A DNA stretch of 64,000 bases from Armatimonadota bacterium (GTDB lineage Bacteria > Armatimonadota > HRBIN16), in the NCBI GenBank assembly GCA_026003175.1, contig BPGT01000001.1, forward strand, positions 434,001-498,000. The letters run 5' to 3'. A program made the position numbers and the translations under genes. A model generated the notes under the pieces. The model was not told the DNA's origin. It searched no databases and was given only the letters and a program-made list of their open reading frames with translations. Of this stretch, positions 30,570 through 51,711 are shown in pieces (position 1 is the stretch's first letter; each line of letters opens with the position of its first letter).

Positions 30570-31895
30570 ATGTTCTCTGCGGAAGCGCTGCTTATTGTCG
30601 CGTTAATTCTGCTTAATGCCTTCTTTGTGGTTGCGGAGTTCGCACTGGTACGCGTGCGAGCCACGAGGCTGGAGGAGCTGGTACAGCAGCAGAACTGGCG
30701 CGCCCGCATCGCTAAGCACGCACAGGAACACATCGACGCCTACCTCAACACGGTGCAGGTAGGCATTACCCTTGCCAGCATCGGACTGGGATGGGTAGCG
30801 GAACCCTGGGCAGCCAAGCAGTTACAACCTTTGTTGAAACTACTGGGCATCACTTCGCCCCGCAGTGTACACCTAACCGCCTTCCTCATCGGATACCTCG
30901 TTATCACCTTCCTGCATGTGGTAATCGGTGAAATGGTGCCTAAAAGCATCGCCATCCGCTGTACAGAGCCTGCCGCGCTGTGGACAGCTCCTCCGCTCAA
31001 CCTGTTTCACCGACTGCTGTTTCCTCTCACCTGGTTGATGACGGGTTGCGCGTCGCTGGTGCTGCGGCTGCTGCGCATCCCGCCCGCCTCTCCTGAGGAA
31101 GCGTATTCTCAAGAGGAGTTGCGTCTCCTGCTTGCCTCTTCGCGACGCTCAGGCGCATTGAAAGACACCGAGGCGGAGCTGATGGAGCATGTCTTCTCGT
31201 TCGGCGATAAGCGAGCGAAAGACATCATGGTTCCCCGTGTGGACATGGTGTATCTGTCTACGACGTGGCCGATAGAGGAGAACCTGCGCATTGCTGAACA
31301 GTACGGCTTCACGCGCTTCCCCCTTTGCGAAGGTGACCCCGACAAGGTGATAGGTATCGTGCACGTCAAAGACCTGTATCGCGCCCACCAGCACGGCATC
31401 GACTCGCTGAAACACATCGCCCGCGACTGTCTGATCGTGCCCGAAAGCAAACCCATAGACGAACTGCTGCGCGAGTTCCAGAAGCAAAAGATGCACATGG
31501 CAATCGTGGTGGACGAGTACGGCGGTACCTCCGGGCTGGTAACTATCGAAGATGTGATTGAGGAGATAGTGGGCGAGATTTACGACGAGTTTGAACCGGT
31601 GCAGCCACGTATCCAGAAGCTCGGCGACGACCGTTATCTGGTGGAAGCCAATGTGGAACTGGACGAGCTGGCGAAACAACTGGGGGTGGAGGTCTCGGCA
31701 GAGGACGGCGCGTTCGAGACCGTGGCTGGCTACGTGATGGGCAAGCTCACCTCTATCCCGCGCGTGGGCGATCGTGTGCCCTTCGGCGATTACGAGGTAC
31801 AGGTGGTTGAAATGCGTGGCAGGCGCGTGCACCGAGTGTATGTGCAGCCAGCTTCTATCCCCCCGCAAACGCCCTCTGTGGGTTCTTCGCGGTAA
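30570..31895 (+). CDS. CNNM/CorC-family membrane protein (HlyC/CorC, DUF21-CBS)
   Basis: 441 residues. A DUF21 membrane domain (residues 1-185: ALILLNAFFVVAEFALVRVR), two CBS domains (about 205-330: DIMVPRVDMVYLS, then VDEYGGTSGLVTIEDVIEEI) and a C-terminal CorC/HlyC transporter-associated domain (about 345-430: GAFETVAGYVMGKL). Homologues are Mg2+ or other divalent-cation transport proteins. Older names such as 'hemolysin' are misleading. The last 41 nt overlap the convergent phosphotriesterase-family gene. Confidence 0.9.
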   Translation: MFSAEALLIVALILLNAFFVVAEFALVRVRATRLEELVQQQNWRARIAKHAQEHIDAYLNTVQVGITLASIGLGWVAEPWAAKQLQPLLKLLGITSPRSVHLTAFLIGYLVITFLHVVIGEMVPKSIAIRCTEPAALWTAPPLNLFHRLLFPLTWLMTGCASLVLRLLRIPPASPEEAYSQEELRLLLASSRRSGALKDTEAELMEHVFSFGDKRAKDIMVPRVDMVYLSTTWPIEENLRIAEQYGFTRFPLCEGDPDKVIGIVHVKDLYRAHQHGIDSLKHIARDCLIVPESKPIDELLREFQKQKMHMAIVVDEYGGTSGLVTIEDVIEEIVGEIYDEFEPVQPRIQKLGDDRYLVEANVELDELAKQLGVEVSAEDGAFETVAGYVMGKLTSIPRVGDRVPFGDYEVQVVEMRGRRVHRVYVQPASIPPQTPSVGSSR

Positions 31896-32787
31896 GCTGC
31901 TCTATCTCCCCATCCGAAAAGCCCGCTTTGCGCAGCGCGGGTATCAGGTGCGTGAACAGCGTGGTGTACTCCCGGAAGTTGCCCCCGCCCGGCTCGCCTA
32001 CTTGGTACCAGCCCGCATCGTGCGACACGAGCACACGCCCCAGCAAACCCTTCTGGCGCAGATGCTGGATAAACTCCACATGCTGGTCTACCGTTTCGGG
32101 GGAGACACCGTCGAACTCCACCCACGCGCCGCGCTCCGCCGCCCACGCATGAAGCGCCTTATCGTTTTCCAGCTGCGCATGTACCCAGATGAACGCCGAG
32201 GGGCGCACGCCCATCTGCTCCAGACGCTCTATCTGCTTGCGCGCGGCGGAGCCCGGTCCGGTGTGCGAAGCGATGGTCAACCCGGTCTCGCGGTGGGTGA
32301 TTGCTGCCGCCTCCAGCAGGCGCATGTCCACTTCCGACGGCTCGGGGTCTACGCCAATCTTGATGAAACCGGGGCGGATGTTTGTGCCATCGATACCCTT
32401 TTGCGCCTCCGCAATCCACTCGCTGGCGATTTGCCGGGCGGTGAGGGTGTGTGCCCTGGCGGGAAGATATTTATCGTCCGCTGCGCCGTACCAGCCAGTG
32501 TTGGTGAGGATGTACAGCCCGCTCGCCTTGCTGAGCAGTTGCAGCAGCTGCGGGTCGCGCCCCAGATAGGCAGGGGTACACTCGACGAGGGTGCGACATC
32601 CTGCCTGCTTCAGCCGTTGCAGGTAGGGCAGGGCGACGCGATACACCTCTTCGGGGTCGTAACGCGATTTGCTCACCCTGTCCGCACCAATGAAATCCAC
32701 CAGCACGTGCTCGTGCGGTAACACGACGCCCAACCGCTGGGGCGGTACGCTGCCTGTGACGGTGATGACCTGTGCAAGCGCGCTCAT
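31855..32787 (-). CDS. Phosphotriesterase-family metal-dependent hydrolase
   Basis: 310 residues. All metal ligands of the amidohydrolase-type site are visible: HEHVLVD (His-x-His), FIKIGVD (Lys that is carboxylated in the family), ASHTGPGS, WVHAQ, and SHDAGW (Asp). Family members hydrolyse phosphotriesters, lactones or phosphorylated sugar lactones. The absence of neighbouring pathway genes leaves the substrate open. It converges with the CNNM/CorC-type gene with a 41-nt overlap at the 3' ends, which could allow antisense interference. Confidence 0.88.
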   Translation of the reverse strand: MSALAQVITVTGSVPPQRLGVVLPHEHVLVDFIGADRVSKSRYDPEEVYRVALPYLQRLKQAGCRTLVECTPAYLGRDPQLLQLLSKASGLYILTNTGWYGAADDKYLPARAHTLTARQIASEWIAEAQKGIDGTNIRPGFIKIGVDPEPSEVDMRLLEAAAITHRETGLTIASHTGPGSAARKQIERLEQMGVRPSAFIWVHAQLENDKALHAWAAERGAWVEFDGVSPETVDQHVEFIQHLRQKGLLGRVLVSHDAGWYQVGEPGGGNFREYTTLFTHLIPALRKAGFSDGEIEQLTAKNPQRAFAGG

Positions 32788-32865: not shown

Positions 32866-32955
32866 TCTGTCAGAACTTTTCTGAAAATGTTGGTGTTGTC
32901 CCAGCGATTGCAAATTGCAGGCAACAGGGGACGCAACCTGCTGGCGTCGGTTCAG
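32866..32955. mobile_element. MITE-like repeat, copy 3 (left part only)
   Basis: Begins with a degenerate end (ATCTGTCAGAACTTTTC) and continues TTGTCCCAGCGATTGCAAATTGCAGGCAACAGG and ACGCAACCTGCTGGCGTCGGTT, matching the left half of the complete copies before the match is lost. It is followed by two REP-like repeats, which fill the space up to the RHS gene. Confidence 0.55.
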
Positions 32956-33030
32956 CCCCACCCAGCCTCCCCGCAGGCGAGGAGGAGCATATATTGTCCC
33001 CCTGCTTGCGTGGGAACTACAGGGGGCTAA

Positions 33031-33055
33031 CGGCTCGGCGGGAGCCTCGCCCTCC
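33031..33055. repeat. Short GC-rich palindromic repeat (REP-like), copy 4, inverted
   Basis: CGGCTCGGCGGGAGCCTCGC and the following CCTCC, in the opposite orientation to copies 1-3. A diverged partner lies at 33081-33105. They abut the 5' end of the RHS gene and may have displaced its original start. Confidence 0.55.
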
Positions 33056-33061
33056 AGAGGG

Positions 33062-35679: not shown

Positions 35680-36344
35680 AAGCCAGCATTCTGATGAAGG
35701 CGGTTAGAAAACACATCCTACCTCTATTACCCAACTTCAGGTACAAACCGACGACGATTCTATACGCCACGCCAGTGGAGATGGTGCTTCGTGCCTTCTA
35801 CTTTCAAACCTCCTATCTGGACAGGGAAGCCTTCACGGTATGGGCGTTCGCTCAACCACTCTATGTGCCCTGTGATCACTTTGTGTTGAATATTGGTAAA
35901 CGATTGGGATGGTTTCAACATGACAGAGACATCTGGTGGCGGTGGCGTCCAGAGGATAACGAGCTGGAGAAGCAAGTGATGCAGGAAATCTATTGGTATA
36001 TTCAAAAGTACGGATTACCCTTTCTGGATAAGGTGGGGACACCCGGTGAGGTGATTGAGTGGATTGACAAAAAGAGCGGAAATCCTAAGGATGTTTACTA
36101 TCAAGAAATAAAAGCTTATTCATATATTCTGATTGGTGATTATCGCGGTGCGCAGAAGATTTTGCCTCGCTTGTATACCGAGTTGCGTCAAGATGAGCCG
36201 CACTATCCGTGGATGGGGGAGATAGCGGAGCGCATCAATCGGATGATGTCGTTGCTGGAGCAGTCATCGGAGGCGGCAGTGCAGCAACTGTATGAATGGC
36301 GCCAGTTTACTTTGACCCAGCTGCGCCTGGAGAAGGAGATTTGA
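35676..36344 (+). CDS. Candidate immunity protein for the RHS tip-1 toxin
   Basis: 222 residues, soluble, no signal. The ATG overlaps the stop of the RHS toxin (ATGA) and has GGAGG 10 nt upstream, the normal toxin/immunity arrangement. YKPTTILYATPVEMVLRAFY and the acidic/aromatic middle part are not assigned to a family with certainty. Base composition drops to a more AT-rich level here than in the surrounding housekeeping genes, as is usual for exchanged immunity genes. The function is inferred from position. Confidence 0.6.
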   Translation: MKASILMKAVRKHILPLLPNFRYKPTTILYATPVEMVLRAFYFQTSYLDREAFTVWAFAQPLYVPCDHFVLNIGKRLGWFQHDRDIWWRWRPEDNELEKQVMQEIYWYIQKYGLPFLDKVGTPGEVIEWIDKKSGNPKDVYYQEIKAYSYILIGDYRGAQKILPRLYTELRQDEPHYPWMGEIAERINRMMSLLEQSSEAAVQQLYEWRQFTLTQLRLEKEI

Positions 36345-36413
36345 AGCGCAGGCAACGGCTATAGAGATGGCAAGCATATGCCATCAGCCAACACACCATA
36401 TGTAGGACAGGAC

Positions 36414-37131
36414 TATAGGCTTGTACCATGTCGGCGCACGGGAGTATGACCCGCGCACGGCACGGTGGCTGCAAAGAGACCCGATAGACGCCGCCAGCGG
36501 CGACCCGAACCTGTATCGGTATTGTGGGAATGACCCCGTCAACCAAGTAGACCCAGACGGCACCGACTGTGACTACCGCAGAGTGCTGGATCTAGCAGGG
36601 TTTATCCCTGGGATCGGGGATGTCGCCGATGCCATCAACGCGATTGGCTATGCGTTAGAGGGCGATTGGGTCAACGCAGGCATTTCGGCGGCTTCGGTAG
36701 TCGGGGCAGATTGGCTCAAAGCCGGTCGGCTGGCAAAGCGGGTCGTGCAGGAGGTGGTGGAGGAAGGGGCAGAGCAGGTTGCCAAACGGGAAGCTAAGAA
36801 CGCCCTGCAGGAACAGGGGAAGAAACAGGCTTCCAACAGCCGAAAGGAGTTTAGAAAAGCTCGTGAGGAGTACTGGAAACGCGAGGCGCAAGAGAACCCA
36901 GACAAGTATTCACCTGAAGATTTGGAGCGCATGAGGCAAGGTAAAGCCCCTATAAGGGATGGAGAACCAGTGCATCTCCACCACAAAAAGCCGCTTTCCG
37001 AAGGTGGTCCTAATTGCCCTGAGAACCTAGAACCGATGACAGGCAAACAGCACCGAGAGCGTCATAAGCAGCAGGGAGATTTCAGCCGTTGGGGAAAGAG
37101 AGGATTGGAGGAAAGGCGAAAGCGGCGATGA
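36414..37131 (+). CDS. Displaced RHS tip 2 with HNH-type nuclease toxin
   Basis: A headless RHS C-terminus. The first 45 codons repeat the RHS core (LYHVGAREYDPRTARWLQR, DPIDAASGDPNLYRYCGNDP) and then diverge. A pretoxin segment (DLAGFIPGIGDVADAINAIG) leads to a charged helical linker and a C-terminal HNH nuclease: VHLHHKKPLSEGGPN, then NLEPMTGKQHRERH. There is no signal or own start beyond TTG 36421. It could be a silent cassette that recombines onto the main RHS gene through the shared core sequence. Confidence 0.7.
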
Positions 37132-38180
37132 ATAGGTGCTTAACCTGGGATGATGTTCTGACGCAGCTTCGCCAGCACTCAGGTGTCAAGCATGGGCTGG
37201 GCTGTGATGAATCCGCTATTCAAGCAGCTGAGCAAACATTGGTGCTCTGCTTCCCTAACTCGTATAAGCAGTTCTTGTTATCTGTAGGATGGTTAGATCT
37301 TGAAGGCGACGAAATATTTGGACTTGGAACGGATCTTCCGGAACAGTATATGGATGTTGTCTGGGCGACCACTAAAGAAAGGGAGATTATCCACCTACCT
37401 GATTCTTTTATAGTCGTTAGCCAAACATACAGGGGCAATCTAATCTGCTTGGATACGGCTGATATGCACGACCAAGAGTGTCCTGTCCTTTTTGTAAGCT
37501 TTTGCCCATCAGCAGATATAAAGATATTGGCAAACTCTTTCGTGGAGTTCGTGCGTGCTTGCCTTGCGTATGGAGCCGAGTACCTTACAGAAGCTTTGCT
37601 AAACGAGGCAGGCGAATCAATAAGCCCTCCAGATGTGGAGCCCGTGAGCTGGCGAGAACACCGACAAGTTCATTATGAAGACGCCCAGCGTTTATTTGAG
37701 CGATATCGCCATCGTGAGCAGTACCTTATCCAATGGGGTCAGATTGTCGGGCGTCCCTGGACTTCCGCTCCAATAGGCTTTGCGAAGGAAGCACGCGACT
37801 TTTTGCTGGCGCATTCGTGGTGTCGGACAGTGCGCTCCCTATCCTTGAGAAAATGGGTAGAAGGTATATTTGCCCTTTTTTACGCCGAGATTGAACCTGA
37901 ACCAGGAAGCGGCGCAGACGAAGCGGTGTGGGTGATCGTAGGTGATTTGCCTCCCGCTTACATAGATGTATTTTCTGCGACGACGGCTCGCGAGGCGTTG
38001 GAAGCCTATATGGGGTTATTGGAAGAATGGGTTGAGGCGGTTCGTGTAGGTGAGCCGCTGGATGAGTTAATGCCGATTTACCACCGCTATTCGCTTGTTC
38101 CCGTGCCACCGACCTTGCGCTTTGCCGAAATGATGTCCTTACGGCTCCAGTTTTTGCAAGACCTACTAAACAATCTGTAA
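37128..38180 (+). CDS. SUKH (SMI1/KNR4)-type immunity protein fused to a second domain
   Basis: 350 residues. Residues 20-150 fit the SUKH immunity fold (AIQAAEQTLVLCFPNSYKQF, then LSVGWLDLEGDEIFGL). The second half (about 205-350: ARDFLLAHSWCRTVRSLSL, AVWVIVGDLPPAYIDVFSA) resembles DUF4826, as I recall it. The ATG overlaps the HNH toxin stop (ATGA). SUKH proteins neutralise many nuclease toxins, so it is the likely partner of the HNH tip. The double-domain arrangement could cover two toxins. Confidence 0.7.
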   Translation: MNRCLTWDDVLTQLRQHSGVKHGLGCDESAIQAAEQTLVLCFPNSYKQFLLSVGWLDLEGDEIFGLGTDLPEQYMDVVWATTKEREIIHLPDSFIVVSQTYRGNLICLDTADMHDQECPVLFVSFCPSADIKILANSFVEFVRACLAYGAEYLTEALLNEAGESISPPDVEPVSWREHRQVHYEDAQRLFERYRHREQYLIQWGQIVGRPWTSAPIGFAKEARDFLLAHSWCRTVRSLSLRKWVEGIFALFYAEIEPEPGSGADEAVWVIVGDLPPAYIDVFSATTAREALEAYMGLLEEWVEAVRVGEPLDELMPIYHRYSLVPVPPTLRFAEMMSLRLQFLQDLLNNL

Positions 38181-38227
38181 AAAACCTTATATAACCGTCT
38201 ATTGGCACAGCTCTTCACTCGGAACAG

Positions 38228-38818
38228 GGCGTACGGGTTTAAGTATATCCTGCCACCGGTTTGTACCATGTGTGCGCACGGGAATACGACCCCCGCACCG
38301 CAAGCAAGGTGGCTCCAACCGGTCTGTATGCGCTGGAAGGCGACTGGACGAACGCCGCCATCTCTGGTGTAGGCGTTATTCCGATATTAGGCGATATTGC
38401 CAAAGTCGGTCGGTGGGTCAAGCGCGTTCAGGCTATCTCTCATGTGGTATTATATGAGCGCGCAGGCAGCAAAGCACTCAGGGCATTACGCCCTTCTGAG
38501 GAGGCGATTTGTGAGACATCTCGCGCTGCGCGTCGTGAGGCGATGAGACAGGCAGGGATACCCACGTGTCAGCAGCCTATCGCCCGGCGAGGGACGGCGA
38601 ATAACTGGCAGTACGAGTATGAAGTACCTTTGCCAGGGGGCGGCATGGATAGGAAGGTTGTTACTCACCACCCTGCGGATACGAGTCATCCATATCCACA
38701 TTGGGAAGCTTCCACCCCGAAGCGAGGAGGAGGGATTGACCCGCTAGGACGCCTTCGTTATGACAATATGGACCGAATTTCACGCAAGCCCAAAGTGAAA
38801 GTTCCTTACAAGAGATGA
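38228..38818 (+). pseudogene. Displaced RHS tip 3, degraded core plus toxin-like C-terminus
   Basis: DNA similarity to the RHS core starts at GCGTACGGGTTTAAGTATAT near 38228 and runs through MYHVCAREYDPRTASKVAPT, but the WLQRDPID stretch is deleted and Gly in HVGA is Cys. After a pretoxin-like linker (GVGVIPILGDIAKVGRWVKR) comes SRAARREAMRQAGIPTCQQP and THHPADTSHPYPHWEA, a pattern I associate with RHS nuclease tips, though the family is not certain. Lacks start and export signals. It is followed by an immunity candidate. Confidence 0.55.
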
Positions 38819-38846
38819 ATCACCAGAGTTACAGGGAGGGAGAGCA

Positions 38847-39455
38847 GTGCAGGTCGATAATGCTCTAAGCAAAGCCTTGCGTAGAAACCGCTTGAAAAAC
38901 CGTTTGCCATCTGAGATGAAAAGGTTGTCCGATATTTTAGGGAGAGCTGTGGATATCGCTCAAGACGTAGAAACAGCCGACTCGGAGGAGCAGTTTGAGA
39001 GGTATCTACAAGCTCTTGAAGAATGCAGAGAGGGTAAGCGCTATCACTTTTACCTAAAAGCACCAGCAAGAGGTCAGCGGGTGGTCAAGCGAGTTCTAGC
39101 TCAGTTGAAGGCTAATGTTGTTGAGGTGCCAATGCGGTTATATTGGCAGGTAGGGGTAGATATTGTTGCGGTGCGGATTATGAGTACGGAAGTGTTCGAC
39201 CATGCGTTGGCTCTTGTCAGCCTTGACCAGAACGACTTGTATGTTTCCACTCTAGATGACAGTACTGGTATGTACCTAAGTTACTATACAGAGCGTGTTG
39301 CTGGTGCATCTCGTAGTGAGTACGAGATGATTATTTGGGGTAACCAGTTTACCGCGTTGCTGCTATCACTCTGGGAGCAGGGGGTCGGTGACATTGGTCT
39401 CGTGACACCAGTAGCCCAGTTCGCACGGCAGAGGGATGAGTCTTTTGAACAATAA
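38847..39455 (+). CDS. Candidate immunity protein for RHS tip 3
   Basis: 202 residues, soluble, starting at GTG 38847 with GGGAGGGAG upstream. It is positioned 28 nt after tip 3. No family is recognised. Composition is AT-rich relative to the housekeeping genes. The role is inferred from place only. Confidence 0.5.
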   Translation: MQVDNALSKALRRNRLKNRLPSEMKRLSDILGRAVDIAQDVETADSEEQFERYLQALEECREGKRYHFYLKAPARGQRVVKRVLAQLKANVVEVPMRLYWQVGVDIVAVRIMSTEVFDHALALVSLDQNDLYVSTLDDSTGMYLSYYTERVAGASRSEYEMIIWGNQFTALLLSLWEQGVGDIGLVTPVAQFARQRDESFEQ

Positions 39456-39458
39456 ACA

Positions 39459-39622
39459 CAGCCTCAGGCGACCCGAACCTGCTACTAGCAAGATGTCGCT
39501 CTCTCGGGCAGTGGATAGACGCTAACATCCTTTTTCTCACTTTCAACTCTCGGAGGTATCATGCGTCCAAACGTGCTGGCGAACTGCTAAGGCAACAGCT
39601 GCGAGAACGAGAAGACATCTGA
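39459..39622 (+). pseudogene. RHS-core scrap and gene remnant
   Basis: CAGGCGACCCGAACCTG (about 39465-39481) repeats the DPNL part of the RHS core and then breaks off. Downstream a short frame reads FNSRRYHASKRAGELL and RQQLREREDI, stop at 39622, and looks like the tail of a lost gene. No start can be assigned. This stretch shows repeated insertion/deletion at the cassette border. Confidence 0.35.
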
Positions 39623-39629
39623 GAGAGAC

Positions 39630-39857
39630 TCACACCCCCACGAGCGCCCGCGCGTGCAAAATCTCGCCTTGCCCCATCGGGCGCACTTCACCTTTGCCCA
39701 GCGTCAGCACCGCCACCGTGCGCCCGTCCGCCGCCACGAACTCCACCTCATACGCTTCACCACCCGCATAGCAGTACACCACCACCCCCACATCTCCCCG
39801 CTGCAGACCATGTTCGGGAATGTCGCGGGTTAATACCACCAGATCGTGTTCCTTCAT
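39630..39857 (-). CDS. DUF4926-domain protein
   Basis: 75 residues. EHDLVVLTRDIPEHGLQRGDVG, then VVVYCYAGGEAYEVEF and GRTVAVLTL are typical of DUF4926, a small SH3-like beta-barrel fold. Its ATG overlaps the stop of the DUF6883 gene (ATGA). Such pairs are seen together in many genomes and are suspected toxin/antidote modules, but no activity is established. It lies on the opposite strand to the RHS cassettes. Confidence 0.75.
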   Translation of the reverse strand: MKEHDLVVLTRDIPEHGLQRGDVGVVVYCYAGGEAYEVEFVAADGRTVAVLTLGKGEVRPMGQGEILHARALVGV

Positions 39858-40213
39858 CGTTCGTTTTCCTCCTGTGGATATGCCGTCACCAAACGCGGTG
39901 CCGATTGCCCCCGTTCCATCATCCACACGGTGCGCACTGCCACCCGCCTGCCGGATGGCGTGTGCAACCGGCCGTCCACCACATACTTTGTACCATATTC
40001 GGTGCTCACCTGTTGCGTCACTTCCCCGTGCCGAGCGATAGACAACAAGCCACGCTCTAAGGCGGCGGGGTCGGAGGGGCTAAACCCTACAGTCGCAAAG
40101 AAAGCAGCCTTTGCCCTGCCGACAGTGTGTGTGGGCGAGAGCAAGTAATCTTCTATTTTGCCTTGGGGCACGTAGGCTTTTTCGGCATGGGGTAGACGTT
40201 TGCGCTCCTGCAT
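39854..40213 (-). CDS. DUF6883-domain protein
   Basis: 119 residues starting MQERKRLPHAEKAYVPQGKI. YLLSPTHTVGRAKAAFFATVG, YGTKYVVDG and VRTVWMMERGQSAPRLVTAY match the DUF6883 pattern. It is coupled to the DUF4926 gene by an ATGA overlap. No clear ribosome-binding site precedes the ATG at 40213. The region upstream of it is RHS DNA on the other strand, so its native promoter may have been lost on insertion. Confidence 0.7.
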   Translation of the reverse strand: MQERKRLPHAEKAYVPQGKIEDYLLSPTHTVGRAKAAFFATVGFSPSDPAALERGLLSIARHGEVTQQVSTEYGTKYVVDGRLHTPSGRRVAVRTVWMMERGQSAPRLVTAYPQEENER

Positions 40214-40264
40214 CACGCAGGCATTTTGGCATACCCTGTGTCCCTCTGTCAACTCCTGCGCCAC

Positions 40265-41095
40265 TTGCGCTCCCCGGCAGGAACGCGGTATGATGTGATG
40301 GATGGTCTGGGTCACACCCGCTTGCTCCTTGACAGTTCGGGCAACATCACCGACCGCTACAGTTACGACGCCTGGGGCAACCCGATAGAGCAGGCTGGCA
40401 CCGCCTTCAACCCCTTCCGCTGGAACGGGGCAGCGGGTTATGAGTATGTGCTCTTCACAGGCTTATACCATGTCGGCGCAAGGGAGTACGACCCGCGCAC
40501 GGCAAGGTGGCTGCAAAGAGACCCGATAGACGCGGCTTCGGGCGACCCGAATCTCTATCGGTATGCAGGGAATGATCCGGTAAATGGAGTAGACCAGAAC
40601 GGTCTGATCGCCTTTGTGCCCGTCATCGTTGGAGGGGCTGCAATCGGGGCATTGTCAGGAGCACTGATTAGTGGCTTATATGAACTTCACGGCTACTTGC
40701 AGGGGCAAAGTTGGGATTGGCGTCATATCGGACATGGCGCTGTTCTGGGAGCAATTGGAGGTGCTGTGGCGGCACCGGTTATTTCCCTGTTGGCTCCGGT
40801 TCTACCTGTAGGGCTGTCCGGTGGCATCATTGGCGGAGCGGTGGGGGCGGTACCTGCTAACCTTGTACAACAAGGTTTCAGCTGCGTAGTAGGTTGGCAA
40901 CAGGGCTTTGACCCATATCAGTTAGGATGTGCCTCTGTGTTCGGGGCACTGGGTGGCAGCGTTGCGCTACGTCCGGGGTTGTTTGCCAGAGGAACCATCA
41001 CTGTCACTCACTGGTCTCCTGGTGGCAGACTGGCTCCTGGACCGGGCAAGTGGGTGATGATCGGTGGACGCACGTGGCGAAACTACTTGTTCAGT
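40265..41095 (+). pseudogene. Displaced RHS tip 4 with glycine-rich membrane-like toxin region
   Basis: From TTGCGCTCCCCGGCAGGAAC (40265) the DNA repeats the main RHS gene at 34738 nearly base for base for about 330 bp, including DAWGNPIEQAGTAFNPFRW and the RHS core. The new C-terminus holds two hydrophobic glycine-zipper stretches (GGAAIGALSGALISGLYELH, LGAIGGAVAAPVISLLAP) and ends VTHWSPGGRLAPGPGKWVM and GGRTWRNYLFSG. After about 41095 the frame ceases to look like protein and the next frame takes over, suggesting a frameshift. Promoter and head are missing. Confidence 0.65.
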
Positions 41096-41645
41096 GGATG
41101 TGATTTACGTAGCGTTCTGGTGGTCAGTCTACTGGTGTCTCGCTCTGCGATGGTATCCGTACTGGCTGTTCTGGCGCGGCTTTCTGCACCCCTGTTACCG
41201 CGAGCAGATGCTTCCGGGAATGATGTTCTTAGGACATCCTCTATCCCCTTACACAGTCTGGGTGCTCTGGAGTGAGCAATCTGTCAATGCGCTAAGAGCA
41301 CTTCTGACGATGTGTGGTCTAGACAGATGTATGCAAAGGTTTCTCAAGAAGAGAGAACTATTGCAAAGGGTTTCGCCAGGCAGAGCACTGCATGGTTTCT
41401 ATCAATATTCCATCTGTAGAAGCCCAGAGCAGATACAGCTGGCGCTACAGCAATGGTGTGCCTTGTCTAATCGCTGGAGTGTGTATGAGTGGTGTCAGCG
41501 AGATAGGTCATCATGGGAGCAGCTTCCCCAGGCAGAGCGTGACCTTCTCGTCATAGTGGATGGCAGGGTATCAGCGCTGCAGTTTGACATTCAGACAGTG
41601 TTAGAATACCTGAGTAGTAGAGGTGGCTGGTGTGGGGACGAGTAA
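41094..41645 (+). CDS. Trp-rich membrane-anchored protein after RHS tip 4
   Basis: About 183 residues if it starts near the GTG at 41094; the frame extends upstream to 41064. The N-terminal part (VIYVAFWWSVYWCLALRWYP, YWLFWRGF) is hydrophobic and aromatic; the C-terminal part (SPEQIQLALQQWCALSNRW, LPQAERDLLVIVDG) is soluble. It may be the immunity protein of tip 4 or its frameshifted continuation. No family is recognised. Confidence 0.4.
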   Translation: MDVIYVAFWWSVYWCLALRWYPYWLFWRGFLHPCYREQMLPGMMFLGHPLSPYTVWVLWSEQSVNALRALLTMCGLDRCMQRFLKKRELLQRVSPGRALHGFYQYSICRSPEQIQLALQQWCALSNRWSVYEWCQRDRSSWEQLPQAERDLLVIVDGRVSALQFDIQTVLEYLSSRGGWCGDE

Positions 41646-41783
41646 TGAACAGGAGAAATATCGCTGGCTCCTGCAGGATTTTGGCAGAATATTGAAGCAG
41701 GAGATACACACTGCAACGCAACTGCGCCAGCGAGCTTACGGGCGACGCGCAGAAAACTATCCATACATATCGGGTTACTTGAC

Positions 41784-41857
41784 TGGGACAAAACCCCCTT
41801 CGGGGGTGGATAACCTGCGTCAGCAGGTTTCGTTCCCTGTTGCCAGCGATTTTCGTC
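41784..41857. mobile_element. MITE-like repeat, copy 4 (partial, inverted)
   Basis: Opposite orientation: CCCCCTTCGGGGGTGGATAA, CCTGCGTCAGCAGG and TTCGTTCCCTGTTGCCAGCG are the reverse complement of the middle of the full copies. It marks the right edge of the toxin island. Confidence 0.55.
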
Positions 41858-41919
41858 TACCTCCTTCGTGGGGATCCCGAATCGGGGGTAGACGACTCGC
41901 TGGCGACAAAAGGCAGACC

Positions 41920-43755
41920 TCATTTCATCGTGGGCACGATGATACCGCGCAGGATGACCCTCTGCGCGAAGATGAACACCAGCAGGGTGGGCAGGGCGGC
42001 AATGACCAGACTCGCCATCCATACCCAGGGGTAACTGTCCCGCCCCAGCTGCCACAGGAAGACCATCATCGTCCACATCTCGGGCTTTTGCACTACCAGA
42101 AACGCCCACATAAAACCGCCATACGCCGAGGTAAACGCGCTCAGCGCAATCACCGCCAGAATAGGCATAGACAGCGGCACGGTGATGTTCCAGAACATGC
42201 GCAGTTCGCCCGCGCCGTCCAGCATCGCCGCCTCGTATAGCTCGCGCGGCAGGCTGTCGAAGTAGCCTTTGAGCAGGAAGATGCCCATGCCGCTCGCCAG
42301 ACCGGGCAGCACCAGCGCCCAGTAGGTGTTCAGCAAGCCCAGCTCCTTAATCAGCAGGAAGTTCGGAATCATCGCCACCTCGGCGGGGAACGCCATCGTC
42401 GCCAACAAGAAGAGCAGAATCTTGTGCGCGTAGGGCAGGTTAAACCGCGACAGCCCATACGCTGCCAGCGGTTGCACCGTCAAATGCCCCAACACCGTCA
42501 TCAGCACCAGCACGAAGGTGTTCCACAACGCGCGCCCGTGAAACAGGATGTAATCCAGCACCAGCCGATAGTTACGGGTGAGGAATTCACGCCGAATCTC
42601 CTGCTTATAGCGCCAGAAGGTGAGCACGTCCGTCTCGGCGCGAGGGGGATACACTTCCTCCCAGCGTGTCCACGACGTGCCGTGTGCGGCGTTGACTGCC
42701 TGTAGCGTGCCGTACTTGCGGCGCAGCCACTGACGCCACAGACCTTCTACCGTCGTCAACCGCTTCGCTTCAGGGGGTACCACCGTGTCCACAAACAGCA
42801 CCCAGTCGGCGAAGCGCAGGTCGTCCTGCGGTAGGGTAGGTGGAAAATGCACCAGTGGCGCGGACAGCGGGCGATGCGGATGCCTCTCTCGCAGGAAGCG
42901 TTGCCACTGCGCATCCCAGTTCCCCTCCACACGCACGAAAAGCAACGGGAACCGTTCGCGCACGTAGCGGTCCCACAATGTGCGCCAGCGAGGGTCTTTT
43001 GGGCGTTCTGCGGGGAACAGCACTTCGTTCAGCGACCGGTAGCGCGTGCCCAGCATGGTGTTCAACTCGTTCACCCCGCCGATATGCCGTTCCACCCACG
43101 CCAGGAAGCCATCGGTCGCCAGCACCGCCATCAGGTCGTGCGCCGGCAGCGCGCGGCGGAACTCCAAATAGAGGTTGCGTAGAGGCGAGGTCTCCCGACG
43201 CGATTTGTGCGTCAGGTCATATTCAAAGGGCGCGACTTCGGTGAAGCTGGTGTACACCGTGCCATACTGCCGATTGAACGCCTCGATATCGTTGTGGTAA
43301 CGTCGCATAAGCCAGCGGGCATAGCGCTGGTTGGTCAAGCGGGTGCGTTTGTCGTCGATGAAGTGCGCCTTCACCCACTCGTCGGGCAGGGTCTTAACGC
43401 ACTGCAACCAGTCTTCCACACGCCGAACCACCTTCGGGTCGTTCACATGGTAATCGGGTATCTTTTCCAGGAAGCGGAAGCTGGTGACATCCAGCCGATG
43501 GATTCGGCGGGCGATGTTGAAGTCGGCGCCGTAGCGGTCGTTCATCCACTTACGGAACAGCGCGGTGTCGTCGCGCAGGTAGGCGGGGATGACTCGCCAG
43601 TCATCGAAGTCGGTATCGGTAGTGATGGACGCACCCAGCATCAGCAGGAAGGGATATATCATCGTCACCGAGCCGATAATCAGCACGGTATAGATGCAGG
43701 CATACACCGCGCGAGCGGTCAGCGTGCGTTGTTCGCAGGGTCCGAACAGCGCCAT
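41920..43755 (-). CDS. MalG-type sugar ABC permease with a large extracytoplasmic repeat insertion
   Basis: 611 residues, about twice the usual 280. TM1 lies at about residues 15-40 (VYACIYTVLIIGSVTMIYPF). The next 350 residues are soluble and contain at least four repeats: RYGADFNIARRIHRLDVTSF, YHNDIEAFNRQYGTVYTSF, GGVNELNTMLGTRYRSLNEV, YGTLQAVNAAHGTSWTRWEE. Beyond about residue 405 the ordinary permease resumes (LWNTFVLVLMTVLGHLTVQP, then the EAA motif YEAAMLDGAGELRMFWNITV). The repeats recall the YGT-x2-x-LN-x2-WGTS segments of GH42-type enzymes. The gene is 3 nt downstream of the fused SBP-MalF gene. No ATPase gene adjoins. Confidence 0.85.
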   Translation of the reverse strand: MALFGPCEQRTLTARAVYACIYTVLIIGSVTMIYPFLLMLGASITTDTDFDDWRVIPAYLRDDTALFRKWMNDRYGADFNIARRIHRLDVTSFRFLEKIPDYHVNDPKVVRRVEDWLQCVKTLPDEWVKAHFIDDKRTRLTNQRYARWLMRRYHNDIEAFNRQYGTVYTSFTEVAPFEYDLTHKSRRETSPLRNLYLEFRRALPAHDLMAVLATDGFLAWVERHIGGVNELNTMLGTRYRSLNEVLFPAERPKDPRWRTLWDRYVRERFPLLFVRVEGNWDAQWQRFLRERHPHRPLSAPLVHFPPTLPQDDLRFADWVLFVDTVVPPEAKRLTTVEGLWRQWLRRKYGTLQAVNAAHGTSWTRWEEVYPPRAETDVLTFWRYKQEIRREFLTRNYRLVLDYILFHGRALWNTFVLVLMTVLGHLTVQPLAAYGLSRFNLPYAHKILLFLLATMAFPAEVAMIPNFLLIKELGLLNTYWALVLPGLASGMGIFLLKGYFDSLPRELYEAAMLDGAGELRMFWNITVPLSMPILAVIALSAFTSAYGGFMWAFLVVQKPEMWTMMVFLWQLGRDSYPWVWMASLVIAALPTLLVFIFAQRVILRGIIVPTMK

Positions 43756-43758
43756 CGC

Positions 43759-46512
43759 TCATGCCTCCACGGCGTGTGCTGCGCGGAACTCCACGCGCTT
43801 GAGGATGCGCAGCTGCAGGATGGTGAAGCCAATCAGCACGGAACCCAACACCCACGCCATCGCCGTGGCATAGCCGAAGCGCAGGTACAAGAAGGCGTTC
43901 GTCCAGATATGAATGCCCAGCACCATCGTGGAGTTAGCGGGACCACCCCCTGTCATCACGAACACGTTCTGCATCGCATGGAAGCTGCCGATGAACGCGC
44001 CGATGAAGTTAATCATGATGAGCGGCTTGAGCGAGGGGAACATGATGTACCACATCTTGTGCCAGAAGTTGCCGCCATCTACCGCGATCGCTTCGTACAG
44101 GTCTTCGGGCACGGTTTTCAGCGCGGCGAGGTAAATCAGGCTGCCCGGTCCCGCCCCCGCCCACACGCCGGGTATCACCACGCACAACATCGCCAGCCCG
44201 GGCGTATGCAGCCAGTCGATATACTTCACTTCGGGCGACACCACGCCCAGCGCGTGCAGGACAGGCATCATGATACGGTTCAGGAAGCCGTAGGGCGAGG
44301 GGTCGTAGAACATCTTCCACAGGAACATGATGACCAATCCGGTGGTGACCGCTGGCAGGTAGAAGATGACACGGAACAGGATTTTGCCCCGCGGCACCTC
44401 GTGCAACAGCAAGGCGAGAAAGATGGGCGCGACGAAACCGATAGCGAGATTTAGCCCCACGTACAGCACCGTCGCCCGCACCGAGTTCCAGAAGTCGGGG
44501 CTGGTCATCACCTCGATGAAGTTCGCCAGCCCCACGAACTGACTGTTGCCGTAGATTTTGTAATCGTAGAACGCCATCAGCGTACCGCGAATGAGGGGCA
44601 CATATTGCCACAGTACCACCGTCAGCAGCGCAGGCAACATCATCGACCACGCCAGCATGGTGGTCACCCTGCGCCGCGCCCCGGAGCCGACTACCTGCGA
44701 CGCCTTCTGTTGCAATGCGCCCACATGCACTTCCGACTGCTCGCGCATCGCCCACACGAAGCCGTATACTACCAGTGGAGCCACCAGCAGGAAGATGATG
44801 GTGCCCAGCAGGTTGCGCCGGTGTTCCACTTCAGGCGGCACCACCCGATACAGCTTCGCGTTCACCTCGTTCATGCTGGTCCGAATGACCTGCGCGGGGT
44901 CTTTGTACTGCCCACCGTCGTAGAGGATGGTATCGATGGGAACCGCCAGCTCGTGCCCCTCCACGTGCTGGTAGTAGGGGTCGTGCGGCTGGATACGCCC
45001 GTATTTCGGAGCCTCCTCCATCGCCCGGCGGAAGGTGGGTTCGTAGTCCTCGTACTCTTCTATAAAACCGAACTTCTTCAGCATCTGCGGGCGGATAAGG
45101 TGCGGGTAGCCGCCTTTCACATACACTTCCGTGATGATGCGCTGCGCCTCTTCGCTACATCGGAACACAAGGTACTCCCACGCCGCCTGAAGCACCTTCG
45201 GGTCGCGTGCGGCGCGTGCACTAATCACCCAGGCGCGTCCTCCGGTGAGCGCAGCGCGCACTCCACCCTCTCCTGCGCTGGGAGGCGGTCCCAGCCCTAT
45301 CTGGTCGGGACGCAAACCGCCCTGCGTGAGCACCTGGTCTATCACCTGCGGGTTGATGTGGTCCAGCATCATGGCGATTTCGCCGCGCAGGAACATTTCC
45401 ACTGGGTCACCCCCCACGCGCACCACCCCAGTATACACCGGCAGTGCACGCAGGTCGCGCCCGCACTGCTTGCAGCGGAAGCGGGTCTGCTCGCGCTTCA
45501 CCGGTATCAACGTGCCGCACACGCGGCAGCTGAGACGCTCCACCTCGCCGCGAATGGGGTTCTCTTCTTTGCATTTCGGGCACACCGCGACCGGCAGGTT
45601 GTTGGGCGTCTGGCAGTCGGGACAGCGCGTCCACTCCGTCCAGCGCAGCTTCTTGTAGAAGCGCAACGCCCTTTGTCCCGGCTCGCGCCCGTAAGCTACC
45701 TTCCAGCGTCGGGGTTGGTCTGCCAGACTGCGTCCGCACTTGCGGCACAGGCATTGCTTATCCTCCTGCTTGAACTCGTTCACTGTGCCGTCGACGGGGC
45801 AGGTGCGCTCCTGCAGGGTCATGTCGCCGCCCGCCTGGTACACGAAGTTGGTGAAGATATAGCCTGCGGTGTAGCCGGTGCGGAGGGCGGTTCCGTACTG
45901 CCCCGTCTGGAATCGCGCTCCCTTCACCTGCTTCTCTGGGTGGGTAAGCCGTTGCGCGAACTCGAAGTACTCCTGCCAGTCCTGCGGTGGTCGCGGCGGC
46001 ACGATGCCTGCTTCCTCAAACAGGTCGCGTCGATACCATAGCCCCAGAATCCAGTAGTCGCTCACGATGGCGTACAGTCTGCCATCGGGTCCGCGTGCGG
46101 CGTCGTAGTGGTGTTCGGTCAAGCCCAGCGAGGGCGGTTTCCAGTGTGGATTCTTCTTGCGGTATTCGTGAATCAGGTCGTCCAGAGGCAGGATTAGCCC
46201 TTGTCGGATATAGTTTTGCACCTGCCGGATGCTGAGGTCAAACACATCCGGGGCGCGATCGGCGGCGAACGCCATCATCTGCTGCGCCTCTGCCAGCCCT
46301 TCCGGCAAGGCGAGACCGGTCACGCGCTCGTAGCGGTAGTTCGGGTGCTTGCGGAAGAAAGCGTCAAACACTGCCAGCTCCGCCTGATTCTGCACGCCCG
46401 TCGCACTGCGCAGGGGGATATTCGCCAGGCGGATGGTGACCACGTTTTTGTCTTCAGCACGCGCTCCCGACACCAACAGCAACGCCATGAGCAGCAGAGC
46501 CAGCCTGAGCAC
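43759..46512 (-). CDS. Fused sugar-binding protein/zinc-ribbon/MalF-type ABC permease
   Basis: About 917 residues from GTG 46512. A signal peptide (LRLALLLMALLLVSGARA) is followed by a periplasmic SBP (about 20-550: ANIPLRSATGVQNQAELAVF, IVSDYWILGLWYRRDLFEEA). Residues about 238-350 contain twelve cysteines in three four-Cys groups: C...CLCRKCG, CPDC...CPKC, CRVC...CKQC, each zinc-ribbon-like. A TM at about 565-590 and a MalF-type permease (about 615-917) with EAA loop YEAIAVDGGNFWHKMW complete it. The upstream frame is open but consists of tandem-repeat sequence and is not counted. The start is uncertain: no good ribosome-binding site is seen. Confidence 0.85.
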   Translation of the reverse strand: MLRLALLLMALLLVSGARAEDKNVVTIRLANIPLRSATGVQNQAELAVFDAFFRKHPNYRYERVTGLALPEGLAEAQQMMAFAADRAPDVFDLSIRQVQNYIRQGLILPLDDLIHEYRKKNPHWKPPSLGLTEHHYDAARGPDGRLYAIVSDYWILGLWYRRDLFEEAGIVPPRPPQDWQEYFEFAQRLTHPEKQVKGARFQTGQYGTALRTGYTAGYIFTNFVYQAGGDMTLQERTCPVDGTVNEFKQEDKQCLCRKCGRSLADQPRRWKVAYGREPGQRALRFYKKLRWTEWTRCPDCQTPNNLPVAVCPKCKEENPIRGEVERLSCRVCGTLIPVKREQTRFRCKQCGRDLRALPVYTGVVRVGGDPVEMFLRGEIAMMLDHINPQVIDQVLTQGGLRPDQIGLGPPPSAGEGGVRAALTGGRAWVISARAARDPKVLQAAWEYLVFRCSEEAQRIITEVYVKGGYPHLIRPQMLKKFGFIEEYEDYEPTFRRAMEEAPKYGRIQPHDPYYQHVEGHELAVPIDTILYDGGQYKDPAQVIRTSMNEVNAKLYRVVPPEVEHRRNLLGTIIFLLVAPLVVYGFVWAMREQSEVHVGALQQKASQVVGSGARRRVTTMLAWSMMLPALLTVVLWQYVPLIRGTLMAFYDYKIYGNSQFVGLANFIEVMTSPDFWNSVRATVLYVGLNLAIGFVAPIFLALLLHEVPRGKILFRVIFYLPAVTTGLVIMFLWKMFYDPSPYGFLNRIMMPVLHALGVVSPEVKYIDWLHTPGLAMLCVVIPGVWAGAGPGSLIYLAALKTVPEDLYEAIAVDGGNFWHKMWYIMFPSLKPLIMINFIGAFIGSFHAMQNVFVMTGGGPANSTMVLGIHIWTNAFLYLRFGYATAMAWVLGSVLIGFTILQLRILKRVEFRAAHAVEA

Positions 46513-46648: not shown

Positions 46649-47137
46649 AACTCCCCTCTCCCTGTGGGAGAGGGGCAGGGGGAGAGGTGCAGCGATAGAT
46701 GACCTAACCCCCAATCCCCCTTCCCTGCGAGGGAAGGGGACAACTCCCCTCTCCCCGTGGGAGAGGGGTTGGGGGAGAGGTGCAGCGATAGATGACCTAA
46801 CCCCCTATCCCCCTTCCCTGCGAGGGAAGGGGACAACTCCCCTCTCCCCGTGGGAGAGGGGTTGGGGGAGAGGTGCAGCGATAGATGACCTAACCCCCAA
46901 TCCCCCTTCCCTGCGAGGGAAGGGGACAACTCCCCTCTCCCCGTGGGAGAGGGGCAGGGGGAGAGGTGCAGCGATAGATGACCTAACCCCCTATCCCCCT
47001 TCCCTGCGAGGGAAGGGGACAACTCCCCTCTCCCCGTGGGAGAGGGGTTGGGGGAGAGGTGCAGCGATAGATGACCTAACCCCCTATCCCCCTTCCCTGC
47101 GAGAGAACCTGTGGGAGAGGGGCAGGGGGAGAGGTAC
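46649..47137. repeat. 93-bp tandem repeat array, about five units
   Basis: Anchor GGAGAGGTGCAGCGATAG recurs at 46681, 46774, 46867, 46960 and 47053, exactly 93 nt apart; a truncated unit ends near 47137. Each unit holds two strong hairpins: CCCCTTCCCTGCGAGGGAAG and CCCCTCTCCCCGTGGGAGAG. The period is a multiple of three, so reading frames stay open through it. This 665-nt stretch between the transporter and deacetylase genes holds no gene. Confidence 0.9.
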
Positions 47138-47178: not shown

Positions 47179-47994
47179 CTACTCCGCTCGATGCAAATCA
47201 CCATAGCTGATGAGATGAATAGCACGCTCGCGGACGCGCTGCATCACCTTTTCACTGGTAAAGGCGTACGTGACCGCCGCGCGCTCTTCTGCGACGTGTT
47301 CATACCCGGTATGCCATAAGGCACGCATCTCTGGCGTATCCAGCCCCGGATGGTCCACGATGAGCCACGTACCCGGCGTCAGGCTGTCCAGAATCTCCAA
47401 CAGAATCGCTTCCTTACGCTGTGCATCTGCCTCCTGCCCGCCGAGGTGCCCGGCGAACTGTAAGCCCTCGTGCTCTAGCGGAAGCTGATACTCGCTCGAG
47501 AGCTTTTGCGTCATCTCGCGCAGCTCCGGCGAAGCCATGGGCGTGCCCATGTGGCAGGAGAGGTGAGAGACCTGCGGGATGTCCTCCAGCGCGATTTCAA
47601 TCTGCGCACGCAGTTCCGCTTCCACCTCTTCTATGCGGTAGCCGCTTTCCAGAAAGCCCGTGCCCGGCGGGAAATCGTCGCGCTGGCTGGTCATCGGCAG
47701 GAAGTGTCCACGTCGGTCGCACAGGCTGGGTGCGCGGGTGACAGGTCCCCACTTACAGCCTTCCCACTCGCTGGTAAGGGTCAGGTGCACGCCCACATCC
47801 AGCCTGGGGTGCTCTCGCAGCATGCGCACCGCCTCTGGGTACCACGGCGCAGGAACCATCACCTCCACGCTGCGCAGGATACCCTTCTGGTAGCATCGGA
47901 TACATGCCTCGTTTGCTGCATGACACGACCCCATGTCGTCGCCTCGCACGATGAGGCGAATCTCGTCTGTGCTGTGCATCGCTTCGGCTGCCAT
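47179..47994 (-). CDS. ChbG/HpnK-type (YdjC) carbohydrate deacetylase
   Basis: 271 residues. IVRGDDMGSCHAANEAC (Asp-Asp metal motif), DVGVHLTLTSEW and SCHMGTPMASPE match the YdjC/ChbG fold, which removes N-acetyl groups from chito-oligosaccharides or related substrates with a divalent metal. It lies upstream of the fused transporter gene on the same strand but is separated from it by the tandem-repeat array. It could act on a transported sugar. Confidence 0.88.
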   Translation of the reverse strand: MAAEAMHSTDEIRLIVRGDDMGSCHAANEACIRCYQKGILRSVEVMVPAPWYPEAVRMLREHPRLDVGVHLTLTSEWEGCKWGPVTRAPSLCDRRGHFLPMTSQRDDFPPGTGFLESGYRIEEVEAELRAQIEIALEDIPQVSHLSCHMGTPMASPELREMTQKLSSEYQLPLEHEGLQFAGHLGGQEADAQRKEAILLEILDSLTPGTWLIVDHPGLDTPEMRALWHTGYEHVAEERAAVTYAFTSEKVMQRVRERAIHLISYGDLHRAE

Positions 47995-50912: not shown

Positions 50913-51251
50913 ATGAAAGTCAAGTTTCTGGTGAGCACCGTGTTAGCGCTGGGAGTGATGGTAAGCGCACTGGCAACCCCCAAGTATCTGGCTGCGTTCT
51001 GGAAAGCCTATCCTTCCGCAAAAAGCACCGCGGTTGGTAAGGCAAAATGTACCGTTTGCCACGTGAAGGGTAAGGAGCTCAACGTCTATGGCAAGGATGT
51101 GCAGAAGGTGTTGCAGGAGAAGAAAACGAAGGATTTGACCGCAGAGATCCTCAAGTCCATCGAGAAGCTCGATTCGGATAAGGACGGCGTTTCCAACGGC
51201 GACGAACTCAAGGCGGGAACCTTGCCCGGCGACCCCAAGAGCAAACCGTAA
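50913..51251 (+). CDS. Small secreted c-type haem/EF-hand-like protein, copy 1
   Basis: 112 residues. A signal peptide (LVSTVLALGVMVSALA) precedes a CTVCH haem-binding motif (CxxCH) at about residue 46 and, at the C-terminus, DSDKDGVSNGDELKAG, a calcium-loop sequence like EF-hand/thrombospondin type-3 loops. It is likely a periplasmic or surface monohaem cytochrome or a redox/structural protein. GAAGGAGG precedes the ATG. A near-identical paralogue follows 85 nt downstream. Confidence 0.72.
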   Translation: MKVKFLVSTVLALGVMVSALATPKYLAAFWKAYPSAKSTAVGKAKCTVCHVKGKELNVYGKDVQKVLQEKKTKDLTAEILKSIEKLDSDKDGVSNGDELKAGTLPGDPKSKP

Positions 51252-51336
51252 GCCAGATAAGATCTTGCGTGGGGATACACTTTATTGGCATAATGCTGGT
51301 CGCATAGAACCCATTAAAAACAGGAGGAACAACAGC

Positions 51337-51711
51337 ATGAAGAGCAACAAAATACTCGTAAGCACCTTGCTCGCTTTTGGGCTGATGGTAGGTGCACTGG
51401 CAACGCCCAAAATGCAAGCGGTGTTTGTGAAGACCTATCCCGCCCCGAAAGATAGCGACCTGGCGAAGGCAAAATGTACCGTTTGCCACGTGAAGGGTAA
51501 GGAGCTCAACGTCTATGGCAAGGATATGCAGAAGGCGTTGCAGGAGAAGAAAACAAAGGATTTGACCGCCGAGATCCTCAAGTCCATCGAGAAGCTCGAT
51601 TCGGATAAGGACGGCGTTTCCAACGGCGACGAACTCAAGGCGGGAACCTTGCCCGGCGACCCCAAGAGCAAGCCGGCGGAGACGAAACCTGCCGAGGGCA
51701 CAACCCAGTAG
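51337..51711 (+). CDS. Small secreted c-type haem/EF-hand-like protein, copy 2
   Basis: 124 residues. The signal peptide and first third differ from copy 1 (LVSTLLAFGLMVGALATPK), but from KAKCTVCHVKGKELNVYGK to GTLPGDPKSKP the protein is almost identical; about five base differences are seen over roughly 200 nt. It has a short Ala/Glu/Thr-rich tail (AETKPAEGTTQ) that copy 1 lacks. AGGAGG precedes the ATG at 51337. This is a recent tandem duplication or gene-conversion product. Confidence 0.72.
   Translation: MKSNKILVSTLLAFGLMVGALATPKMQAVFVKTYPAPKDSDLAKAKCTVCHVKGKELNVYGKDMQKALQEKKTKDLTAEILKSIEKLDSDKDGVSNGDELKAGTLPGDPKSKPAETKPAEGTTQ

What the first reader, a model, noticed from the sequence alone, without database searches (positions are those of the whole stretch)
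43759..46512. Sugar-binding protein with three zinc-ribbon-like modules fused to its own MalF-type permease
A single protein of about 917 residues carries a signal peptide, an extracytoplasmic binding domain, and a MalF-type permease. Inside the binding domain, about residues 238-350 hold twelve cysteines in three four-Cys groups (C..CLCRKC, CPDC..CPKC, CRVC..CKQC). Zinc ribbons usually work in the cytoplasm, in contact with nucleic acid or protein; an exported binding protein with three is, to my knowledge, not described. Tethered SBPs also change the logic of ABC import: one binding protein per transporter, with no soluble exchange. The module could sense zinc or redox state, or rigidly position the SBP.
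Basis: partly seen in the sequence, partly recalled or inferred. Interest (0 to 1): 0.85.

Follow-up and report, generated by a model that had tools for sequence, protein, structure and literature searches.

The report
Sugar importer with exported zinc-ribbon loops
A heat-loving bacterium of the Armatimonadota has a sugar-binding protein fused to its membrane transporter and carrying three cysteine clusters that probably grip zinc outside the cell; relatives keep the same loops with fewer or no cysteines, so the clusters look like structural staples rather than a sensor.

Summary
The protein lies on the minus strand: a GTG start at 46512, 917 aa, with signal peptide, cluster-D-type sugar-binding domain, TM anchor and a six-TM MalF-type permease with an EAA loop. 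Twelve of its 14 cysteines lie at residues 238-350, and all twelve are invariant in eight same-genus orthologues (all that cover the region), although the larger loop evolves fast. They sit in two separate inserts of the binding domain: loop A (one 4-Cys ribbon) and loop B (8 Cys, probably two tandem ribbons).

The fusion is neither an artefact nor new. SBP-MalF fusions occur across Armatimonadota (76 of 191 same-phylum genomes), and MalE-MalF of Bdellovibrio is published. The partner MalG carries a ~380-residue ectodomain.

What is new is the ribbons and their variation. Other families carry Cys4, C3H or C2DH versions of one loop. Many carry the loops without cysteines but with the knuckle prolines and glycines kept (CPxCG to SPTTG, APDTG or DPETG). 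His/Asp replacing Cys favours metal over disulfides. Cys-free versions argue against zinc or redox sensing being essential. Most likely these are zinc-stapled (secondarily metal-free) loops that rigidify or dock a tethered binding protein. No metal was measured, and the loop-B model is only moderately confident.

The parts
43759..46512 (-). SBP-MalF fusion protein, 917 aa (stop included)
   Evidence: orthologues
46453..46512 (-). signal peptide (about residues 1-20), GTG start
   Evidence: hydropathy; helix 2-16; ATG at the same place in L010
44812..46452 (-). extracytoplasmic sugar-binding domain (residues 21-567) including both inserts
   Evidence: Pfam; fold match to MalE-like SBPs, Z 29.9 over 375 residues
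45727..45807 (-). loop A (residues 236-262): single ribbon, C238, C254, C256, C259 (D241 at the second-ligand place)
   Evidence: pLDDT about 85-90; homologous to C3H and Cys-free loops, hhalign 95.7%
45457..45630 (-). loop B (residues 295-352): four CxxC knuckles (297/300, 311/314, 329/332, 347/350), probably two tandem ribbons
44755..44811 (-). TM anchor joining SBP to permease (568-586)
43762..44679 (-). MalF-type permease core (612-917), six TMs, EAA loop at 807
41920..43755 (-). partner MalG-type permease, 611 aa, EAA loop at 508
42532..43665 (-). MalG ectodomain insert (residues 31-408) between TM1 and TM2, with a GH42-like motif
47179..47994 (-). YdjC/ChbG-type carbohydrate deacetylase, syntenic upstream gene
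31855..32787 (-). phosphotriesterase-family gene, next to MalG in orthologous loci, here separated by an RHS island

Best explanation
An ABC sugar importer of the maltose/UGP (CUT1) type in which the binding domain is covalently tethered to MalF and paired with a MalG that carries its own large ectodomain. Two surface loops of the binding domain, both probably in its C-terminal lobe, have grown into small zinc-ribbon modules: loop A holds one Cys4 ribbon, loop B two in tandem. After Sec export each ribbon binds one structural Zn(II). This staples the loop rigidly, which helps a tethered SBP of a thermophile keep its shape and present a fixed surface to its permease or the MalG ectodomain. Other lineages kept the loops and replaced the ligands, so zinc is one way of holding the fold, not the working principle. 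Shown: architecture, conservation, the loop series, homology of loop A, pairing with the long MalG. Inferred: export, zinc binding, loop-B pairing of cysteines, stapling role, docking, the sugar transported.
For: All 12 Cys invariant across 9 species (window plus eight) while loop B varies at 22 of 58 positions. Canonical CPxC/CxxCG knuckles; best library matches are zinc ribbons (TackOD1, DZR, RPB12 E 9e-4, aligned to residues 299-345). Loop A modelled at pLDDT about 85-90. In relatives ligands become H or D, not arbitrary residues, in C3H (L071, L091, L019, L059) and C2DH (L092) forms. Cys-free loops keep the knuckle P and G (SPTTG, APDTG, DPETG), and loop A of the window is homologous to them over all 40 columns (hhalign 95.7%, E 8e-9). 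SBP fold match Z 29.9; EAA loops in both permeases. The window genus has 16S G+C of 60.4-61.2%, as thermophiles do; Cys-bearing genomes 57.4-61.2% against 53.6-55.3% in five of six genomes without inserts.
Against: No metal measured. VKOR and DsbA are encoded, so the extracytoplasm can oxidise cysteines. Loop B model is moderate (pLDDT 73) with no significant Foldseek match, and in the full model parts of it are below 50. Loop B homology between Cys and Cys-free forms is weak except for L019 vs L063. The temperature trend is not corrected for relatedness, and one insert-free genome has 60.5%.
Confidence: 0.6

Rival explanations
1. The cysteines form disulfides in the oxidising extracytoplasm: the loops are disulfide-braced hairpins, not metal sites.
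For: Even number of cysteines; VKOR and DsbA genes adjacent in the genome; disulfides are common in exported proteins of thermophiles (own knowledge).
Against: Ligand-type replacements by His and Asp at the knuckle positions in relatives; odd numbers of Cys in several relatives (3 in L019, L059, L071, L091); knuckle prolines and glycines typical of zinc ribbons.
Confidence: 0.2
2. The ribbons are a zinc or redox sensor that gates sugar uptake.
For: Exposed thiolate sites on a tethered SBP could respond to metal or oxidant; no direct evidence here.
Against: Most relatives with the same loops have lost the ligands; no metal or redox gene in the conserved neighbourhood (YdjC deacetylase, permeases, PTE).
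Confidence: 0.08
3. The ribbon loops are a specific docking surface for the MalG ectodomain or another partner, and zinc only folds it.
For: The fusion and the long-insert MalG co-occur (46 genomes with both, 30 and 6 with one, 109 with neither), and the long MalG lies directly downstream of loop-bearing fusions in ten loci read.
Against: The long MalG also accompanies fusions without ribbon loops (G185, G013, G106), so the ribbons are not needed for the pairing; co-occurrence is not corrected for relatedness.
Confidence: 0.25
4. Assembly, frameshift or contamination artefact joining an SBP, a ribbon protein and a permease.
For: None found.
Against: Same fusion, same inserts and same flanking genes in eight other assemblies; fusions across the phylum.
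Confidence: 0.01

Closest known systems
MalE-MalF fusion of Bdellovibrio bacteriovorus (Licht et al. 2019; MalE domain PDB 6ffl)
   Same: SBP fused N-terminally to a MalF permease; the SBP domain matches 6ffl at Z 25.7; reference read in PMC9045158
   Different: No zinc-ribbon inserts are mentioned in what could be read, and the matched domain is of ordinary SBP size (383 residues); the MalG ectodomain was not compared
Other SBP-permease fusions (OpuA, GlnPQ, OpuF, EgtU)
   Same: Tethered binding domain, one chain with the permease (PMC9732360; PMC11065425)
   Different: Different SBP and permease families; no ribbons known to me
Double zinc ribbon (Pfam DZR PF12773, DZR_2, Zn_ribbon_6; YfgJ)
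   Same: Four CxxC knuckles in about 55 residues; sub-threshold profile matches
   Different: Below curated cut-offs; inserted in an exported SBP
RPB12/RPABC4 zinc ribbon
   Same: Residues 299-345 match at E 9e-4: CPKCKEENPI...CRVCG
   Different: Cytoplasmic RNA polymerase subunit; the match would pair knuckles 2 and 3, not 1-2 and 3-4
Glycoside hydrolase family 42 (for the MalG ectodomain)
   Same: W..WLR.KYGTL.AVN..HGT.W motif, PF02449 E 1e-6 over 60 residues
   Different: Only a fragment; no catalytic domain recognised

Membership tests
CUT1-type ABC sugar importer (MalEFGK-like) | cluster-D-type sugar-binding protein fold | tested here: met
   PF13416/PF01547 over cut-off; Z 29.9 over 375 residues to a solved SBP
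CUT1-type ABC sugar importer (MalEFGK-like) | MalF and MalG permeases with EAA loops | tested here: met
   BPD_transp_1 in both; EAA loops at 807 and 508
CUT1-type ABC sugar importer (MalEFGK-like) | MalK-type ATPase | tested here: inconclusive
   None next to the operon; one TOBE_2 match elsewhere in the genome, in an open frame of 122 aa; not followed up
CUT1-type ABC sugar importer (MalEFGK-like) | transports sugars | not testable with these tools
   Needs uptake or binding assay
SBP-permease fusion (tethered SBP) | SBP and permease in one open frame, conserved in orthologues | tested here: met
Zinc ribbon / double zinc ribbon | curated profile match over cut-off | tested here: not met
   DZR 22.2 bits vs 27.3; TackOD1 22.9 vs 32
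Zinc ribbon / double zinc ribbon | two CxxC knuckles per site, conserved | tested here: met
   loop B four CxxC, invariant in the genus; loop A is C...CxCxxC, an atypical first knuckle
Zinc ribbon / double zinc ribbon | ribbon fold | tested here: inconclusive
   loop A confident strands; loop B pLDDT 73 with paired strands around each knuckle, no significant fold match
Zinc ribbon / double zinc ribbon | binds zinc | not testable with these tools
   Needs ICP-MS or a structure

The most novel reading that the evidence does not exclude
Armatimonadota have a distinct importer class in which MalF carries the binding protein and MalG carries a large ectodomain, and the zinc-ribbon loops of the binding protein form a metal-dependent contact with that ectodomain, so that metal occupancy sets how the tethered receptor engages the channel.
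Probability: 0.12. Interest if true: 0.72.

Novelty: new variant of a known kind. Interest (0 to 1): 0.5.

Why it matters
Zinc ribbons are usually thought of as cytoplasmic (own knowledge). Here is a family of exported binding proteins in which the same two loops occur as Cys4, C3H, C2DH, single-Cys and Cys-free forms in one phylum, a natural series for asking how a metal-stapled fold forms outside the cytoplasm and how it survives loss of its metal. It also points to a phylum-wide importer layout (SBP on MalF, large ectodomain on MalG) that the papers searched here do not describe.

Tried and rejected
Artefact of assembly or frameshift: rejected by orthologues. Upstream 218 residues of the ORF as coding: rejected, 93-bp tandem repeat and an orthologue starting at the same codon. 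Loop B alone against solved structures with Foldseek: all hits E > 0.3, mostly zinc proteins, taken as uninformative. Profile comparison of loop-B forms: Cys vs Cys-free 8% probability, window vs Cys forms 68%, window vs Cys-free none, so homology of all loop-B inserts is not claimed, only their shared position after the conserved Trp and the L019-L063 resemblance. A plasmid search gave no record covering 80% of the protein at one place. Paper searches for zinc ribbons in solute-binding proteins, for Armatimonadetes and zinc ribbons, and for exported ribbons found nothing on point. Relatives outside the phylum could not be searched systematically: the one genome-contig scan was used with the full protein and found close relatives only.

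Full report
What is there. On the minus strand, 43759-46512 encodes a 917-aa protein. The open frame continues upstream to 47166, but that part is a 93-bp tandem repeat plus leader, and an orthologue has ATG at the window's GTG (L010). Pfam finds SBP_bac_8/SBP_bac_1 and BPD_transp_1. Hydropathy shows a signal peptide, a single TM anchor at 568-586 and six permease TMs, with an EAA loop at 807. The AlphaFold2 model (mean pLDDT 76.8) has a MalE-like binding domain: Z 29.9, 375 residues aligned, to an SBP of Thermotoga lettingae, with maltose-, trehalose- and cellooligosaccharide-binding proteins close behind.

The cysteines. Twelve of 14 cysteines lie at 238-350, chance 9e-10. They fall in two inserts. 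Loop A (236-262) lies between the strand after AGGD and the helix 277-291; loop B (295-352) follows that helix and the conserved W294. By the known topology of maltose-binding protein (own knowledge) both are in the C-terminal lobe. All twelve are invariant in the eight same-genus orthologues that cover the region, although 22 of 58 loop-B positions vary, more than elsewhere in the protein. In loop A the model is confident (pLDDT about 82-93). In loop B the full model is poor in parts; folded alone with its nine orthologues it reaches 73 and shows a strand before and after the first three knuckles, the pattern of two tandem ribbons. The RPB12 match (E 9e-4) would favour 2-3 instead. Foldseek with loop B gives no significant match.

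Relatives. SBP-MalF fusions occur in 76 of 191 same-phylum genomes outside the genus at E <= 1e-20. Profiles of the insert region found the inserts in other families of the phylum. Loop B alone: Cys4 in families f26 (L021, L028) and f9 (L060-L062; in L060/L061 the first knuckle is altered to CEDDDEPC, in L062 to CPND), and C3 plus His in f31 (L019, L059). Loop A alone: C3H in L071 and L091, C2DH in L092, one Cys in L067. Both loops without cysteines: L063-L066, L068-L070, L072-L076, L086-L088, L104. The Cys-free loops keep the proline and glycine of the knuckles: CPTCG becomes SPTTG, CPRGH becomes PDTGE, loop B starts DPETGEP. Window loop A is homologous to this series over all 40 columns (hhalign 95.7%, E 8e-9; shuffles give P <= 0.0035 against six of seven members). 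For loop B only L019 vs L063 is convincing (P 0.0005). In a maximum-likelihood tree without the inserts the A+B Cys-free group forms one half with f31, and the window genus falls in the other half with insert-free and loop-B-only groups. The root is arbitrary, so whether cysteines were lost or gained is not proved. I think loss is likelier, because conversion of SPTTG...APDTG into full ligand sets would need several coordinated gains.

Metal or disulfide. The genome encodes a DsbA and a VKOR side by side, so disulfides are possible. Substitution by His and Asp at ligand positions, odd cysteine numbers in relatives and the knuckle signature favour metal. Zinc is the usual guest of such sites, but none was measured.

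Partner and neighbourhood. MalG (41920-43755) has a 378-residue ectodomain between TM1 and TM2. Sequence shows only a GH42-like motif. The same insert is found in 66 of 291 genomes and co-occurs with the fusion (46 both, 36 one only, 109 neither, not corrected for relatedness). It also accompanies fusions without ribbon loops, so it does not depend on them. In orthologous loci the order is YdjC deacetylase, SBP-MalF, MalG, phosphotriesterase-family protein; in the window an RHS cluster separates the last two. No MalK gene is adjacent; a TOBE_2 match lies elsewhere.

Temperature. 16S rRNA G+C is 60.4-61.2% in the genus, 57.4-59.1% in other Cys-bearing genomes and 53.6-55.3% in five of six insert-free genomes, the sixth 60.5% (Mann-Whitney P 0.01 without correction for relatedness). 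This fits a stabilising role but proves nothing.

Verdict. The fusion part is known (Licht 2019 via PMC9045158; EgtU in PMC9732360). The ribbon inserts in an exported SBP, and their graded loss of ligands across a phylum, appear undescribed in the papers searched. Most likely mechanism: structural zinc staples of enlarged SBP loops, possibly at a docking surface; sensing is unlikely.

Noticed in passing
window 41920-43755 (-): MalG with a 378-residue ectodomain between TM1 and TM2 carrying a GH42-like motif; in 66 of 291 Armatimonadota genomes; fold not predicted.
   Followed up: partly
window 32900-41900: RHS-repeat gene cluster lies between MalG and the phosphotriesterase-family gene, which are adjacent in orthologous loci L039, L040 and L044: probable insertion of an RHS island.
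   Followed up: partly
window 46649-47107: 93-bp tandem repeat, 4.9 copies, 96% matches, just upstream of the fusion gene; translates as SPNPSPTGRGE and is open in the gene's frame.
   Followed up: partly
L121 (G000:C6:141500-149500): A second SBP-permease fusion (828-aa frame) in the same genome, without the ribbon inserts.
   Followed up: no
G000:C2:962185-963229 (L135, L136): DsbA-like and VKOR genes side by side: disulfide-forming machinery of this lineage.
   Followed up: no
window 50913-51711 (+): Two short exported-looking proteins in tandem with CxxCH motifs (AKCTVCHVKGKELNVYGKD), possibly small cytochrome c-like duplicates.
   Followed up: no
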